This document shows positions 1,114 through 26,107 of a stretch of DNA of 64,000 nucleotides, piece after piece. The translations under genes and the position numbers were made by a program. The DNA is taken from the NCBI RefSeq assembly GCF_010091925.1, contig NZ_WVID01000001.1, forward strand, positions 1 through 64,000. The letters are read 5' to 3'. How positions within the stretch are numbered: the first letter of the stretch is position 1; each line of letters opens with the position of its first letter. The notes under the pieces are model-generated. The model was not told the origin of the DNA and made no database searches. It was given only the letters and a program-made list of their open reading frames with translations. Source of the stretch: Nostoc sp. B(2019) (GTDB lineage Bacteria > Cyanobacteriota > Cyanobacteriia > Cyanobacteriales > Nostocaceae).

Positions 1114-2646
1114 ATGCTTGCCAGAGTTTGGAGTGCATCAATTGTAGGTATCGATGCCGTTAAAGTGGGTGTGGAAGTCGATATATCAGGGGGACTACCA
1201 GGAATTGTTGTCTTAGGACTGCCAGATTCAGCGATTCAGGAATCTAGAGAGAGAGTCAAGGCAACACTGAAGAATGCAGGTTTTGCCTTTCCGATGCGAA
1301 AGATTGTGATTAATTTAACTCCAGCTGATTTACGCAAGGAAGGCCCCTGTTTTGATTTACCAATTAGTGTGGGAATTTTAGCGGCTTCTGAGCAAGTTAG
1401 TGCTGATTTGTTGGGAGATTATCTATTTTTAGGGGAAGTTTCTCTGGATGGCACTTTGCGGCCTGTGGCTGGCGTCCTACCGATCGCTGCTAATGCTCAA
1501 AAGATGGGAATTGCAGGTTTAGTTCTTCCTGCTGATAATGCACAAGAAGCTTCAGTAGTGCAAGGATTAGCTGTTTACGGCTGCAAACATCTGTCTGATG
1601 TAGTTAATTTTTTAAGTAATCCAGGACGTTACAAACCTGTGCAGATGGATGACACTGTAGAGACGTTACATGTAACGTCTCTACATTCCGCAGATTTGCA
1701 AGATGTCAAAGGACAAGCTCATGCTCGACGTGCTTTAGAAATTGCTGCTGCTGGCGGACATAATTTAATTTTTGTGGGGCCGCCTGGTAGTGGCAAAACG
1801 ATGCTAGCGCGACGCTTACCAGGAATTCTGCCGCCTTTGTCATTTGCTGAATCTTTGGAAGTGACTCGTATTCACTCGGTGGCTGGTTTATTGAAAAATC
1901 GCGGTTCATTGGTACGCGATCGCCCTTTCCGCAGTCCGCACCACTCAGCATCCGGGCCTTCTCTGGTTGGTGGTGGTACTTTCCCGCGTCCTGGCGAAAT
2001 TTCATTATCTCACCGAGGTATTCTTTTTCTCGACGAACTCACGGAATTTAAACGCGATGTGCTGGAATTTCTGCGTCAGCCTTTAGAAGATGGCTACGTA
2101 ACGATTTCCCGCACTAAACAATCAGTAATGTTTCCCGCTCAGTTTACTTTGGTGGCGAGTACGAATCCCTGTCCTTGCGGTTACTATGGCGATACCATTC
2201 AACAGTGTACTTGTTCGCCACGACAACGCGAGCAATATTGGGCAAAGCTTTCTGGGCCGTTAATGGATCGAATTGATTTACAAGTAGCGGTGAATCGCTT
2301 GAAACCAGAGGAAATTACCCAACAACCTACAGGAGAAGCATCAACATCAGTGCGTCAACGAGTACAACAAGCACGCGATCGCGCAATTACTCGTTTCCAA
2401 GAAGAAGTAAATCTGCGTTGCAATGCCCAAATGCAAAGTCGTCATCTCCAAAAGTGGTGTAAGCTTGATGACGCTAGTCGCAATTTATTAGAAGCAGCAA
2501 TTAGAAAATTAGGTTTATCAGCAAGAGCTAGCGATCGCGTTCTCAAAGTAGGGCGTACGATTGCAGATTTAGCTGGAGAAGATGAGCTAAAAGCCAATCA
2601 TCTGGCGGAAGCAATCCAGTATCGCACAATCGATAGAATGCAGTAA
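1114..2646 (+). CDS. comM: YifB/ComM family Mg-chelatase-like AAA+ ATPase
   Basis: A 510-residue protein with the three parts of the ComM/YifB family: an N-terminal S5-fold/Lon-like domain (about 1-175), an AAA+ Mg-chelatase core with Walker A GPPGSGKT (Lys228) and Walker B LFLDEL, and a C-terminal Mg-chelatase domain (about 400-510) with four cysteines near NPCPCGYYGD...CTC. ComM in other bacteria is a helicase that drives branch migration during natural transformation; the same role is inferred here. The linker between the first two domains contains an in-frame 30-base perfect palindrome (see 1656-1685). The ATG at 1114 gives the full family N-terminus MLARVWSASIVGIDA. Confidence 0.92.
   Translation: MLARVWSASIVGIDAVKVGVEVDISGGLPGIVVLGLPDSAIQESRERVKATLKNAGFAFPMRKIVINLTPADLRKEGPCFDLPISVGILAASEQVSADLLGDYLFLGEVSLDGTLRPVAGVLPIAANAQKMGIAGLVLPADNAQEASVVQGLAVYGCKHLSDVVNFLSNPGRYKPVQMDDTVETLHVTSLHSADLQDVKGQAHARRALEIAAAGGHNLIFVGPPGSGKTMLARRLPGILPPLSFAESLEVTRIHSVAGLLKNRGSLVRDRPFRSPHHSASGPSLVGGGTFPRPGEISLSHRGILFLDELTEFKRDVLEFLRQPLEDGYVTISRTKQSVMFPAQFTLVASTNPCPCGYYGDTIQQCTCSPRQREQYWAKLSGPLMDRIDLQVAVNRLKPEEITQQPTGEASTSVRQRVQQARDRAITRFQEEVNLRCNAQMQSRHLQKWCKLDDASRNLLEAAIRKLGLSARASDRVLKVGRTIADLAGEDELKANHLAEAIQYRTIDRMQ
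1656..1685. repeat. 30-base perfect palindrome inside comM
   Basis: The sequence from TGTAGAGACGTTACA to its exact reverse complement forms a perfect 15+15 palindrome. It is translated in frame as part of VETLHVTSLH, between the N-terminal and AAA+ domains. Its form matches short dispersed palindromic repeats of filamentous cyanobacteria that normally lie between genes. Confidence 0.8.
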
Positions 2647-2777
2647 AAGCATCGACTCTACTAAATTCTTCCTCAAGGAAGCTACACAAACACCCTTGGG
2701 ATGATGACATGAACTATAAAATCAGTATCAAATATATCAGGAAGTAAGCAAAATTCCCTGAGAAGGAGACTGATTGG

Positions 2778-3794
2778 ATGAGTTTGCAGGCAATTTGGAA
2801 GTTGTTACAAGAGACGTTTAAAGAATGGAATGAGGATAAAGCCTCACGATTAGCGGCAGCACTCGCTTATTACACGATTTTTTCGATCGCACCGTTGCTG
2901 ATTATTGTAATTGCGATCGCAGGCGCAGTATTTGGAGAAGAAGCAGCTAGAGGCGAAATTGTTCAACAAATTCAAGGTTTAGTCGGCAGAGACGGAGCAG
3001 AGTTTATCGAAACAGCCATCCAAAATGCTAACAAACCACAGACAGGAGCGATCGCCTCCATCATTAGTTTTTTAGTTTTGATATTAGGTGCTACTGGTTT
3101 ATTTACCGAGTTGCAAGATTCCCTTAACACAATTTGGGAAGTAAAACCTAAACCTGGACGCGGTATTGTCAACATCTTTCGCCAACGCTTTTTGTCGTTT
3201 GCAATGGTTATAGGTATTGGCTTTTTGCTTCTGGTTTCACTAGTAATTAGTACAGCGTTAACAGCGCTGGTAACATACTTTAGCAACCTGATACCTGGTG
3301 TCGATTTCATCTGGCGGATAGTCAACTTTATCCTTTCCTTTGCTATAACTACATTGCTGTTCGGGTCAATATTCAAAGTTTTGCCAGATGTCAAAATTAC
3401 TTGGAGTGATGTTTTAATTGGGTCTGTTATCACCTCACTGTTATTCTCAATTGGTAGGTTTTTATTAGGACAATATCTAGGGAATGGCAGTTTTGGTTCA
3501 ACCTACGGTGCTGCTGGTTCACTGGTGGTTATCTTAGCCTGGGTTAACTATGCCGCGCAGATTCTTTTCTTTGGTGCAGAATTTACCCAAGTGTATGCCA
3601 GAAGATACGGAAGTGGCATAGTCCCAACTAAGAATGCCATGCCTCTGTCTAGTAACACAAAACCCAATGACAATACTCAAAAAGAACAGCCTTCTTCTAA
3701 GAAAAAGCCTTCTTCTAGCTTAATTAATCGCTTAATTCGGTATTTTCGCAAACCCAAGCGTTTAAAACAAAAAAGGAAAAATCAGCGATTTTAA
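2778..3794 (+). CDS. YihY/BrkB family inner membrane protein
   Basis: A 338-residue polytopic membrane protein of the YihY/virulence factor BrkB family, once mis-described as RNase BN. Family features are the N-terminal SRLAAALAYYTIFSIAPLLIIVIAIAG segment read in short pieces as AAALAYYTIFS and the conserved YGAAGSLVVILAWVNY region near residue 240. About six hydrophobic segments are followed by a lysine-rich tail (about 285-338). AAGGAG at 2763-2768 lies 9 bases before the ATG. The function of the family is not established. Confidence 0.88.
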   Translation: MSLQAIWKLLQETFKEWNEDKASRLAAALAYYTIFSIAPLLIIVIAIAGAVFGEEAARGEIVQQIQGLVGRDGAEFIETAIQNANKPQTGAIASIISFLVLILGATGLFTELQDSLNTIWEVKPKPGRGIVNIFRQRFLSFAMVIGIGFLLLVSLVISTALTALVTYFSNLIPGVDFIWRIVNFILSFAITTLLFGSIFKVLPDVKITWSDVLIGSVITSLLFSIGRFLLGQYLGNGSFGSTYGAAGSLVVILAWVNYAAQILFFGAEFTQVYARRYGSGIVPTKNAMPLSSNTKPNDNTQKEQPSSKKKPSSSLINRLIRYFRKPKRLKQKRKNQRF

Positions 3795-22810: not shown

Positions 22811-25800
22811 TTACTCATCATCAACTTCTGATTCCTCTACCCACTCAGGCGTAGTTATGGAGTCAGAAAACTCTGTGGTATCTTCTGTGAAGCGGATAAT
22901 TTGTCCGTTGAAAAATTCTGCTAAGCGCTGAGCTGCGATCGCTACTTCGTCAGGTTCCCAATTAGCAGGGGGTGTCTGGGGTTGTGCTTGCGGCAAAGTT
23001 TGTACTGTACTCCCACCATTTGTCGCCACCGACTCAGTTATTGTTGGTGCTTGCTTGACTGGTTGCGGTACTGGTGCTGGAGACGAAATTTGATTCTCGT
23101 AACTGGCACTAGGTGGCTGCTGAACACGAGTAGAGTCTTTTGGTGGAGGCTCTTTTCTGACTGAGGTAGAGGTCGAAGAAATTCCTTTTTCTAGATTTAC
23201 CTTGACTTCATGTTGGAAAGTCTGCTGAAAAGCCGCCACAATCATCGGTAGATCAGATTTAACTTTTTCATACCATACCTGTTTGATTGCAATACAAGCT
23301 ACAGTCCCGTCAAACTCAATGAGATGGCACATTTGACGTAGCAGTTCTCGTCTTGAGATTGGCTGGAGGTTAGTAAGCACCTGTTGCCAAACCTGAGTTA
23401 AGTCATATTGTGATGTCTCAACCACTTCTGAGGTTACTGGTTCAATTCTTGCAGGTGGCGGAGGAACAGATACAGGTTCTAGGCTTGGTGGTGATGAGTT
23501 ACCAGCATTGTGATTTGTTTGCGGCTCATCTGGGAGAGATGAACTTACAGGGTGATTTTGGGCAACTGCTAGATGATGGTTTAGGGATGCAGAATTGTGA
23601 TTTGTTTGCGTCTCAGTTAAAGGCAAAGAAGAGACTGCGTGATTTTTAGGAACTGCTGGAGGAGATGAAGATACAGCAGGTGTATTGACTCGCGGTGAGA
23701 TACTTGAGACTTGTGGCTGAATATTGGTTGCACTGGGTAACAATCCGAGTAATGTTACCTCTAACCACAAACGTGGCTGGGTGGTGTTTTTAATTTGTAC
23801 TTCAGATGTTCGCAGGTGTTGCTGTCCCGCCAAAATTGCACTCATGTCCAACTTTTTGGCAAACTCAACTAGTGCTGTCCAGGTTTGGCGAGTGCAAGCA
23901 ACTAAATCGTGACGGTTAGGTGCAGTTTGAGCAATCAGTAAATCGCGGTAGAATGCGGCGAGATTTTGGAGAATAGTTAACGGTTCTCGACCAAGATCTA
24001 GGATTTTACGGGTGCAATCTAGAACGGCTTCTGGATTATTTTGAGCGATCGCATCTAAAAGCGCTAGTAAGTCCCGTTCGCTGACTGTACCGACTAAATC
24101 CCAAACTCGGTCTGGTGTCACCTCACCCGATAACAAAGCCAATTGATCGAGCAGACTTTCAGCATCCCGCAATCCTCCCTGAGCAATTTGGCCTACCAAG
24201 GTAACGGCGTCAGGCGAAATAGTAATGTTTTCTTTAAGAGCGATCGCGCTTAAATGTCTCACCATCGCTTCTAACTGAATACGTCTAAAATCAAACCGCT
24301 GACAGCGCGAAATAATAGTTGGCAATACTCGCTGGGGGTCGGTTGTCGCCAATACAAAAACTACATACTTCGGTGGTTCTTCTAGTGTTTTTAGTAGCGC
24401 ATTGAACGCCTGAGTACTGAGCATGTGGCAATTATGTACCAAAAGCCCATTTGCCACAAAGTTATGATTATCTGCCACTTCAATGTCATAGACTCGCTCA
24501 ATCCCAGCGAGGTGAACAGATTCGACTGTTTCCAAACTTGTAATCCATTGAGGGAATGGAATATTGTTTAAGGTCTGCCAGCCATTTTCTACTGGTACTT
24601 GCGCCCAACTGTATATAGTAGTAGGTCTTACTTGTACTACTTCTGGTGTAAAACTTTGTTGCGGCTGAATATCCCATTGCTGTAAGCCAACTGGCAATGA
24701 GTTGATTTTCTGCGTCAGAGAATCCTTCTGTATGCAATTGAATTCGTGGACTTCCTTGTGGACTGAGACTGAGTGAGCCATCATCCATGTACCACTAAGC
24801 GAGTCCTTCTGGGGTAATTTGATTAAGCCAGTCCATAGAGACAAGTTTTTTATCCCCATTTGGTTTAACCATTTCAAAGACATCTTTGAGTTGGGGATGG
24901 CAAGCTGTGTTACAGGTAACTGATATTTTTCCGTATCCTTTGTTAGCTGTAATTCGCAGTTTTGGACGTAATTCTTGAAGGCGACAGGCTTTGTATTCCA
25001 ACCATTCTTGCTGCTTTTCTGAGTGTGTCCAACACAATCTGGGGAATCTGCTGTATTTATTGGGATAACTGATAGAGCAATCCCCAAGTAAGGTTCCGTA
25101 GATAAGTCCAAGTGAATTTGGCTGTATAACTGTCGCATCCGCAAAGAACTTTTCTGTTCTAAGTTCCCAAATTCCGTGTCCTTTTTTATATGGATGTTTT
25201 TCCCAGCGAGACTGGATGCTGATGATTCCTCGGCCTTTTTTTTGTAAAAAGGTTGGGATATCCAGCTTTTCTCCACACCCGCAAGCACAGAAAGGCCGCA
25301 GTAATTCGGCTTGTTTAAAGATAGATTCCAGGTCGTATGATTTTTGCCCAGATGTATTGCCTTTAAACTGGTGTCCGCTAACAAATCTTCGGGTACGTCC
25401 ATCGATACCAAATTTGTAGATGAAGATGCCACATCCACATTCATAGGGGATAGTATCCTCACTCCTTCTTTTACGTCCTTTGCTGGTAGCCATCCCTGGT
25501 TTGTCCTAATTAAATGATTACCTGTACATCTAATTTCTCGGTTAGTTGTCTTGATAATCAGGGTTTGCCGTTCTCCTTGGTCTAACCACTTGACAACTTT
25601 TTTGAATTCCCACTTACCTGATGAGTCGTTGTAGCTCAAAACCCTCTTATCTTTGATTTTGGGGTCATCGATTCTTTTAAGTCCGTCATCAGTCAAGACC
25701 AGAGAATCTCCCGTTAGGCATTCATCCACCACATAAACCTTGTAGCGACACTGCACAGGAGCAAACTGGGCCTTTTCAATCAGTTCGCGGATGTTATCGA

Positions 25801-26107
25801 CACCAGTGTTACTAGCGGCGTCGATTTCTATTACATCTAGGGAATACCCTTTAGTGATTCCTTGACAAACATCGCACACGCCGCAGGGTTCAGCAGTTGG
25901 TTTGTCACTTTTCAAACAATTGAGAGATTTGGCCAAAATGCGGGCGCTAGAAGTTTTCCCTGTACCTCTGGGGCCAGTGAACAAATAGGCAGGGGCGATT
26001 TTGGCTGTACGAATTGCGTTGGTGAGAGTGGTAGCGATCGCCTCTTGGCCCACCAGTTCAGCAAAACTCTTGGGGCGATACTTGTGGTGCAGGGGTTCGT
26101 AAGACAT
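22811..26107 (-). CDS. dnaX: DNA polymerase III gamma/tau subunit with an intein
   Basis: The clamp-loader ATPase that loads the sliding clamp at the replication fork. The 1098-residue reading frame contains 668 residues of DnaX plus a 430-residue intein. Extein features: Walker A GPRGTGKTSSAR (45-56), the zinc site C64/C75/C78/C81, and Walker B VVDE-CHML, which the intein splits exactly between Glu129 and Cys. After the intein come LLKTLEEPP, the sensor region ATTDPQRVLPTI, and domain III, followed by a Pro/Ser-rich tail (tau-like). Splicing must occur for a working ATPase. A separate endonuclease is encoded out of frame inside the intein. Confidence 0.95.
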   Translation of the reverse strand: MSYEPLHHKYRPKSFAELVGQEAIATTLTNAIRTAKIAPAYLFTGPRGTGKTSSARILAKSLNCLKSDKPTAEPCGVCDVCQGITKGYSLDVIEIDAASNTGVDNIRELIEKAQFAPVQCRYKVYVVDECLTGDSLVLTDDGLKRIDDPKIKDKRVLSYNDSSGKWEFKKVVKWLDQGERQTLIIKTTNREIRCTGNHLIRTNQGWLPAKDVKEGVRILSPMNVDVASSSTNLVSMDVPEDLLADTSLKAIHLGKNHTTWNLSLNKPNYCGLSVLAGVEKSWISQPFYKKKAEESSASSLAGKNIHIKKDTEFGNLEQKSSLRMRQLYSQIHLDLSTEPYLGIALSVIPINTADSPDCVGHTQKSSKNGWNTKPVAFKNYVQNCELQLTKDTEKYQLPVTQLAIPNSKMSLKWLNQMGIKNLSLWTGLIKLPQKDSLSGTWMMAHSVSVHKEVHEFNCIQKDSLTQKINSLPVGLQQWDIQPQQSFTPEVVQVRPTTIYSWAQVPVENGWQTLNNIPFPQWITSLETVESVHLAGIERVYDIEVADNHNFVANGLLVHNCHMLSTQAFNALLKTLEEPPKYVVFVLATTDPQRVLPTIISRCQRFDFRRIQLEAMVRHLSAIALKENITISPDAVTLVGQIAQGGLRDAESLLDQLALLSGEVTPDRVWDLVGTVSERDLLALLDAIAQNNPEAVLDCTRKILDLGREPLTILQNLAAFYRDLLIAQTAPNRHDLVACTRQTWTALVEFAKKLDMSAILAGQQHLRTSEVQIKNTTQPRLWLEVTLLGLLPSATNIQPQVSSISPRVNTPAVSSSPPAVPKNHAVSSLPLTETQTNHNSASLNHHLAVAQNHPVSSSLPDEPQTNHNAGNSSPPSLEPVSVPPPPARIEPVTSEVVETSQYDLTQVWQQVLTNLQPISRRELLRQMCHLIEFDGTVACIAIKQVWYEKVKSDLPMIVAAFQQTFQHEVKVNLEKGISSTSTSVRKEPPPKDSTRVQQPPSASYENQISSPAPVPQPVKQAPTITESVATNGGSTVQTLPQAQPQTPPANWEPDEVAIAAQRLAEFFNGQIIRFTEDTTEFSDSITTPEWVEESEVDDE
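24431..25720 (-). mobile_element. DnaX intein (430 residues)
   Basis: Protein-splicing element between DnaX Glu129 and the following Cys. It starts with Cys1 (block A CLTGDSLVLT), has block B with GNHLIRTNQGWLPAKDV (68-84), and ends with block F VYDIEVADNHNFVANG and block G LLVHN, followed by Cys+1. All splicing residues (Cys1, block B His69, terminal His-Asn, Cys+1) are present, so splicing should work. The length equals the 430 residues I recall for the Synechocystis DnaX intein. Residues about 97-405 in this frame show no LAGLIDADG motif and are Ser/Lys-rich. Confidence 0.93.
24498..25493 (-). pseudogene. LAGLIDADG homing endonuclease nested in the -1 frame of the intein, amber-interrupted
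   Basis: Read one base back from the intein frame, the same DNA encodes about 331 residues typical of a homing endonuclease. There are cysteine-rich zinc-binding-like motifs YECGCGIFIYKFG...RRFVSGHQF (17-42) and FCACGCGEKLD (68-78), LAGLIDADG helix 1 LGLIYGTLLGDCS (128-140), and helix 2 GLA-stop-WYMDDGSLS. The single TAG (24797-24795) falls inside helix 2; a TGG-to-TAG change would explain it and would be only Gly-to-Ser in the intein frame. It has its own ATG at 25493, preceded by AGGA (25507-25504) with 10 bases spacing and by an in-frame stop at 25508-25506. It ends just before intein block F. Probably inactive in this strain unless the amber is suppressed. Confidence 0.85.

What the first reader, a model, noticed from the sequence alone, without database searches (positions are those of the whole stretch)
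24498..25493. Homing endonuclease encoded in a different frame inside the DnaX intein
Two protein-coding messages overlap for about 1 kb. The intein frame is open across 430 codons and splices DnaX, but its centre has no endonuclease motif. The -1 frame of the same DNA encodes zinc-binding-like cysteine motifs and a LAGLIDADG domain, with its own ATG, an AGGA 10 bases upstream and an upstream in-frame stop. A random -1 frame of this length should contain many stops (roughly one per 15-20 codons at this composition); only one is present. This suggests selection on both frames: an endonuclease gene nested in, not fused to, an intein. I cannot say whether an out-of-frame endonuclease has already been reported for cyanobacterial DnaX inteins.
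Basis: partly seen in the sequence, partly recalled or inferred. Interest (0 to 1): 0.93.

Follow-up and report, generated by a model that had tools for sequence, protein, structure and literature searches.

The report
Homing endonuclease hidden inside DnaX intein
A selfish DNA-cutting gene is written in a shifted reading frame inside a self-splicing insert of a cyanobacterial DNA-replication gene; relatives with the same layout exist in phages, and this particular copy has a premature stop.

Summary
dnaX (26107-22811, -) carries a 430-codon intein (25720-24431). The -1 frame of the same DNA (25493-24498) encodes a LAGLIDADG endonuclease: Pfam E=2e-10 for the part before its stop, 7.5e-22 for an intact relative, whose fold model matches I-WcaI and I-SceI. 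Thirty distinct equal-length inteins, the window's included, show the frame of selection switching: codon position 3 varies most in exteins and splicing domain, intein position 2 (the endonuclease wobble base) in the centre. Both frames avoid stops far beyond chance. The intein-frame centre looks like a spacer kept open rather than a second conserved protein; clear dual constraint is seen only near endonuclease codons 1-25 and 316-331. The window's copy is probably dead: TAG replaces a Trp present in the 29 others, and Cys17 is Tyr. The layout recurs in phage helicase genes at the same DE/C site (two viral contigs; Xanthomonas phage FoX3, whose sisters FoX2 and Murka lack the insert), and as a split form in Pectobacterium and Escherichia phages. 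An out-of-frame endonuclease in a cyanobacterial DnaX intein may already be in print (Gorbalenya 1998; recalled, not readable here); the phage counterparts and the possible link to split inteins appear the newer part.

The parts
22811..26107 (-). dnaX, DNA polymerase III gamma/tau subunit, 1098 aa with the intein in frame
   Evidence: ORF list; Pfam DNA_pol3_delta2 9.6e-40, DNA_pol3_gamma3 4.5e-16, Intein_splicing 2e-13
24431..25720 (-). DnaX intein, 430 codons, inserted as ...YVVDE | CLTGD...LVHN | CHMLS (the Walker-B motif; motif name recalled)
   Evidence: TIGR01445 intein_Nterm 3.2e-10 and TIGR01443 intein_Cterm 5.2e-8
24498..25493 (-). nested homing endonuclease reading frame (331 codons + stop in most intact relatives), -1 relative to dnaX, ATG at 25493, stop at 24500-24498
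   Evidence: Pfam LAGLIDADG_2; fold match I-WcaI/I-SceI for the intact relative L019
24795..24797 (-). premature TAG at codon 233 of the endonuclease frame; Trp in the 29 other distinct 1290-nt inteins
25419..25493 (-). 5' zone with constraint in both frames (endonuclease codons 1-25; includes the first Cys cluster)
   Evidence: endonuclease wobble diversity 0.205 here against 0.37-0.40 in codons 26-300
24501..24548 (-). 3' zone with constraint in both frames (endonuclease codons 316-331)
   Evidence: endonuclease wobble diversity 0.199 against 0.353 in codons 301-315
25506..25508 (-). in-frame TAG five codons upstream of the endonuclease ATG
   Evidence: stop at codon -5 in 22 of 30, some stop within 20 codons in 29 of 30

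Best explanation
The DnaX intein is a mobile two-gene unit on one stretch of DNA. Frame 0 is read by every ribosome that makes DnaX; its central ~300 codons are a spacer kept open and removed when the intein splices. The -1 frame is a separate gene, started at its own internal ATG, for a monomeric I-SceI-like LAGLIDADG homing endonuclease with an N-terminal cysteine module. The endonuclease cuts intein-less dnaX near the insertion site and repair copies the whole intein in. In the window's genome the endonuclease has decayed by a nonsense mutation while the intein frame is preserved, as expected late in a homing cycle. Shown: the gene, its predicted fold (in a relative), selection on its frame, openness of the host frame, decay series, phage relatives. 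Inferred: translation from the ATG, cleavage, homing in cyanobacteria, splicing of this protein.
For: Pfam LAGLIDADG_2 2e-10 in the window, 7.5e-22 in L019; PHROG 11023 homing endonuclease 3.1e-16 for L019; AlphaFold model of the L019 endonuclease, pLDDT 79.8, Foldseek E 7.3e-11 to I-WcaI and 3.0e-10 to I-SceI, TM on target 0.74-0.75. Diversity at intein codon positions 1/2/3: N-extein .176/.135/.489, intein codons 1-74 .208/.122/.461, codons 78-405 .143/.364/.190, codons 409-430 .060/.054/.427 over 30 distinct inteins. Endonuclease aa identity exceeds intein-centre aa identity in 435 of 435 pairs. Stop avoidance in both frames. ATG at the same place in 30 of 30 distinct 1290-nt inteins. Deletion series 387-1017 nt with dnaX in frame. 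Natural empty sites beside an occupied one in phages FoX2 and Murka against FoX3.
Against: No expression or cleavage data. No conserved Shine-Dalgarno (AGGA in 20 of 30). The ATG is also kept in 13 of 13 mini-inteins with the GW pair, so its conservation does not prove its use. Endonuclease frame has a stop within codons 1-327 in 6 of 30 distinct full-length copies, the window's among them; one of the six, L010, stops only at codon 324. Endonuclease wobble diversity (0.35-0.40 in codons 26-315) is below that of the exteins (0.49), so some amino-acid constraint on the intein centre is not excluded. Extein and endonuclease DNA identities correlate at 0.92, so much of the cyanobacterial pattern may be vertical.
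Confidence: 0.87

Rival explanations
1. Programmed -1 frameshifting: ribosomes slip inside the intein and make a DnaX-intein-endonuclease fusion instead of starting at the internal ATG.
For: dnaX is a classic bacterial frameshift gene (recalled). Slippery-type heptamers A AAT TTG at +78 and T TTA AAG at +126 from the ATG occur in 22 and 21 of 30 inteins.
Against: A -1-frame stop lies within 20 codons upstream of the ATG in 29 of 30, which excludes slippage further upstream. The two heptamers lie inside the endonuclease, encode conserved residues (YKFG, QFKGN), are missing in 8 and 9 of 30, and slippage there would drop the first Cys cluster.
Confidence: 0.08
2. A dead relic: the endonuclease frame is a fossil in all lineages and no longer selected.
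For: The window copy is broken and 6 of 30 full-length frames have stops within codons 1-327; many relatives keep only fragments.
Against: 24 of 30 are intact; codon-position signal in the -1 frame and 0 stops against a mean of 12; D138, D237 and D238 are invariant in the 23 aligned intact proteins (22 of the 24 intact ones plus L040; L008 and L033 were not put in).
Confidence: 0.04
3. Chance open frame with spurious similarity.
For: None found.
Against: Profile, fold, cross-species conservation and codon-position signal agree.
Confidence: 0.01

Closest known systems
Synechocystis sp. PCC 6803 DnaX intein (Ssp DnaX)
   Same: Intein in a cyanobacterial DnaX (PMC3443213: introduction and passages; PMC3620165: passages); its 430-aa length is recalled. 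Gorbalenya 1998, Non-canonical inteins, may already describe an out-of-frame endonuclease in it (recalled, not held).
   Different: The passages seen in those two papers do not mention an out-of-frame endonuclease. The PCC 6803 sequence itself was not examined here.
ShiLan element, out-of-frame HNH endonuclease in a phage methylase (PMC11855218: abstract, outline, discussion, reference list part 1 and passages seen)
   Same: A homing endonuclease encoded out of frame in an insertion that keeps the host frame open.
   Different: ShiLan has no detectable splicing domain and an HNH nuclease; here the insertion has intein splicing motifs and the nuclease is LAGLIDADG.
Canonical bifunctional inteins such as PI-SceI
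   Same: Splicing domain divided around a LAGLIDADG endonuclease; PI-SceI is also among the fold matches.
   Different: There one polypeptide holds both; here they are in different frames.
I-SceI / I-WcaI
   Same: Predicted two-motif LAGLIDADG fold.
   Different: I-SceI is intron-encoded (recalled); this one is intein-nested and has an extra N-terminal Cys module.
Fractured genes with split inteins around a free-standing endonuclease gene (Dassa et al. 2009, recalled, not read)
   Same: In Ymer and AN_ECEAS the helicase is in two ORFs, each with part of an intein, with an endonuclease gene between them.
   Different: Here the endonuclease gene overlaps both intein parts and belongs to the same family as the contiguous nested ones.

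Membership tests
Intein (class 1) | N-terminal Cys, block B TxxH, C-terminal HN followed by Cys | tested here: met
   C1, TGNH, LVHN|C in the window; TIGR01445, TIGR01443 and Pfam PF14890 above cut-off
Intein (class 1) | protein splicing activity | not testable with these tools
   engineered Ssp DnaX mini- and split inteins splice per PMC3620165 (passages)
LAGLIDADG homing endonuclease | two LAGLIDADG motifs with acidic residues | tested here: met
   LIYGTLLGD and AWWYMDDGS; D138 and D237/D238 invariant in 23 of 23 aligned relatives. In the window the TAG lies inside the second motif, so the window's own product lacks it
LAGLIDADG homing endonuclease | pseudo-symmetric LAGLIDADG fold | tested here: met
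   model of relative L019, Foldseek to I-WcaI and I-SceI; the window's own broken copy was not folded
LAGLIDADG homing endonuclease | cleaves the intein-less allele | not testable with these tools
   no biochemical data
Canonical bifunctional intein | endonuclease in the same frame as the splicing domain | tested here: not met
   endonuclease codon position 1 = intein codon position 3 in the 30 distinct 1290-nt inteins
Overlapping gene | both frames open and at least one selected as protein across the overlap | tested here: met
   in the window's own copy one frame has one stop
Mobile element | present/absent alleles in near-identical backgrounds | tested here: met
   phage FoX3 against FoX2 and Murka, exact 942-nt difference, flanks 97.0-99.3% identical; shown only for a phage relative, not for cyanobacteria
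Split intein (Ymer-type and AN_ECEAS-type phages) | intein parts on two polypeptides that splice in trans | tested here: inconclusive
   two ORFs with intein parts are present; the C-terminal parts match Intein_splicing below its cut-off; trans-splicing not testable here

The most novel reading that the evidence does not exclude
One lineage of DE/C-site inteins carries its endonuclease in the -1 frame in both cyanobacterial dnaX and phage helicases, and is a direct source of split inteins: once the endonuclease has its own start, a stop in the host frame inside the endonuclease-only zone turns the intein into two trans-splicing halves with the endonuclease gene between them, as the layout of Ymer-type and AN_ECEAS-type phages suggests.
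Probability: 0.45. Interest if true: 0.75.

Novelty: new variant of a known kind. Interest (0 to 1): 0.62.

Why it matters
It is a clean natural case of a ~1 kb same-strand gene overlap in a bacterial replication gene, with the frame of selection switching twice along the DNA. It suggests that an intein can uncouple its endonuclease from its splicing domain and stay mobile, lets the endonuclease decay without harm to the host protein, and offers a testable route from contiguous to split inteins. It also means that inteins without an in-frame endonuclease motif can hide one, so inteins scored as endonuclease-free should be rescanned in all frames.

Tried and rejected
Frameshift fusion: examined and judged unlikely. 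Start-codon conservation as proof of use: rejected, because 13 of 13 mini-inteins with the GW pair keep the same GGATGG (2 of the 15 minis lack the pair; 5 of 6 mid-size ones keep it, one has GGGTGG). Shine-Dalgarno conservation: AGGA in 20 of 30, not strong. Promoter scan: 2 sites against 2.1 expected, uninformative. Homing in cyanobacteria from identity outliers: pairs with L025, with L029 and the pair L004/L028 have endonuclease DNA about 11-14 points more alike than exteins, and endonuclease exceeds extein identity in 328 of 435 pairs; suggestive only, because the overlapped DNA is also more constrained. PDB sequence search: no hit. Viral search with the window protein: none; with the alignment A1: 9 loci; with the FoX3 protein: only FoX3 itself, as an IMG/VR record of the same length; with the AN_ECEAS protein: none; with A2: 8 loci, of which L126 is L079 again and L127 is new. 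Tree of 25 endonuclease cores: nested plus split rows form one group with support 85/90, which is below the program's starred level; L127, found later, was not in it. NCBIfam gave RNase HI at E=0.067 over part of the intein-frame centre, far under its cut-off: taken as chance.

Full report
What is there. On the minus strand dnaX runs 26107-22811 without a stop and matches DNA polymerase III gamma/tau and intein splicing models. The intein is 25720-24431, 430 codons, between YVVDE and CHMLS. In the -1 frame an ATG at 25493 opens 232 codons to a TAG at 24797-24795; the frame then stays open to a TGA at 24500-24498. The first piece matches Pfam LAGLIDADG_2 at 2e-10; the second, from the next ATG, weakly at 0.026 and below the curated cut-off. 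The intein-frame centre matches no Pfam family at E<=1.

Relatives. The window's -1 protein found matches in 18 of 386 drawn genomes of the phylum, the window's own included and several of them short fragments, and 29 loci in the genome contig collection. Named and unnamed loci may overlap in species. Both intein ends were found in 45 of the 46 relatives L002-L047 (L040's contig ends inside the intein), and none of these 45 inteins has a stop in the dnaX frame. Thirty-one inteins, the window's included, are exactly 1290 nt; 30 are distinct (L020 repeats L002). L035 (1287 nt) and L040 were left out of the codon-position and stop counts. Of the 30, 24 have no stop in endonuclease codons 1-327; the others are L010 (only at codon 324), L023, L026, L029, L032 and the window. 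Twenty-three intact proteins (22 of the 24, without L008 and L033, plus L040) align over 331 columns; D138 and D237/D238 are invariant.

Frame of selection. Mean pairwise diversity at intein codon positions 1/2/3 is .176/.135/.489 in the last 150 N-extein codons.198/.110/.491 in 200 C-extein codons.208/.122/.461 in intein codons 1-74.143/.364/.190 in codons 78-405, and .060/.054/.427 in codons 409-430. The most variable base moves from intein position 3 to intein position 2, which is the endonuclease's third position. So the -1 frame is the selected protein in the centre and the intein frame at both ends. Endonuclease wobble diversity is 0.205 in codons 1-25 and 0.199 in codons 316-331 against 0.353-0.397 between: these ends look dual-coded. 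The wobble diversity between is still below the exteins' 0.49, so a weaker constraint on the intein centre is not excluded. Endonuclease protein identity exceeds intein-centre identity in 435 of 435 pairs, means 0.74 and 0.54.

Stops. Over endonuclease codons 26-315, with the endonuclease protein and codon usage kept, synonymous shuffles give a mean of 6.0 stops in the intein frame; with the intein protein kept, 12.2 in the endonuclease frame; observed 0 and 0 in the 24 intact ones. For the window over the whole overlap the figures are 6.4 expected against 0, and 14.9 against 1.

The window's copy is probably dead. The TAG stands where the 29 other distinct inteins have Trp, just before the second acidic pair, and residue 17 is Tyr where the 29 others have Cys; the shortened relative L013 also has Tyr there. 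An assembly error cannot be excluded.

Start. The ATG is present in 30 of 30, but also in 13 of 13 mini-inteins that have the GW pair, so it may be kept by the intein. AGGA is present in 20 of 30; a stop five codons upstream in 22 of 30 and within 20 codons in 29 of 30.

Decay series. A mini-intein query found E<=1e-8 matches in 39 of 386 genomes, 32 of them at E<=1e-35. Thirty loci were returned and all 30 gave an open intein at the same dnaX site (the script accepted only inteins without stops): 9 full length, 6 of 486-1017 nt, 15 of 387-438 nt. Of the 32, G172 and G014 were not among those loci; G014's dnaX intein is L009. Many short ones still carry pieces of the endonuclease frame at both ends, fitting loss by deletions that keep dnaX in frame.

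Fold. The AlphaFold model of the L019 endonuclease has pLDDT 79.8 and pTM 0.67, with low confidence at residues 1-8, 37-51 and 323-331. Foldseek's best PDB matches are I-WcaI (E 7.3e-11) and I-SceI (3.0e-10), TM-score on the target 0.74-0.75.

Beyond cyanobacteria. The same -1 nesting occurs in two viral contigs, L079 and L127, and in Xanthomonas phage FoX3, where no endonuclease is annotated at that place. The host proteins match ResIII and Intein_splicing, FoX3's also Helicase_C; the nested frames of L127 and FoX3 match LAGLIDADG_2 at 1.1e-13 and 9e-22. All three inteins sit between DE and C. In L079, FoX3 and the window the endonuclease ends 67-73 nt before the intein end. Both frames avoid stops in L079 and FoX3 (L127 not tested). 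FoX3's 942-nt intein is exactly absent from FoX2 and Murka, with flanks 97.0-99.3% identical; other sisters show the same 65% coverage but were not opened. In Pectobacterium phage Ymer and Escherichia phage AN_ECEAS the host frame has 13 and 10 stops across the endonuclease, and the helicase lies in two ORFs, each with part of an intein, overlapping the endonuclease gene in the same frame relation. Three further Pectobacterium phage records and Escherichia phage ES gave the same kind of hit and were not opened. In-frame relatives exist too: KLEP7 RNA ligase, a Miltoncostaea plasmid RNA ligase and a phage protein, L080. A tree of 25 cores groups nested and split ones with support 85/90, not starred.

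Mechanism. dnaX translation yields a precursor whose intein splices out; the endonuclease is translated separately from the internal ATG and drives homing into intein-less sites. Translation start, cleavage and splicing are inferred.

Prior work. Ten library searches listed no paper whose title, abstract start or opened passages describe an out-of-frame endonuclease in an intein; one search listed 20 of 303. Ten papers were opened, most for passages only. The nearest is PMC11855218 (ShiLan, out-of-frame HNH, not an intein). It cites Gorbalenya 1998 and a 2025 preprint on actinobacteriophage inteins with non-canonical architecture; neither is held. I recall, without proof, that Gorbalenya may have noted this for Synechocystis DnaX. 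Novelty is therefore claimed only as a variant, resting on the selection evidence, the phage counterparts and the split forms.

Noticed in passing
L088 (MT161383.1) 2342-3100: Unannotated LAGLIDADG endonuclease nested in the -1 frame of the FoX3 helicase intein; FoX2 and Murka lack the whole insert.
   Followed up: yes
L089 1791-4901 and L091 1818-4952: Phage helicases in two ORFs with intein parts and an endonuclease gene overlapping both: candidate natural split inteins.
   Followed up: partly
L064 1477-2130, L066 1357-2079, L078 1489-2124: A LAGLIDADG-like ORF at the same place between two conserved genes in three cyanobacterial genomes, apparently free-standing.
   Followed up: no
L128 2659-3126, L132 2998-3591: The CxCGCG...GH module of the nested endonuclease also occurs in other viral ORFs that look by eye like HNH nucleases (not scanned against families): perhaps a shared Cys module.
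   Followed up: no
L012 and L047: Two distant cyanobacteria have 687-nt remnants of the intein with different internal deletions.
   Followed up: no
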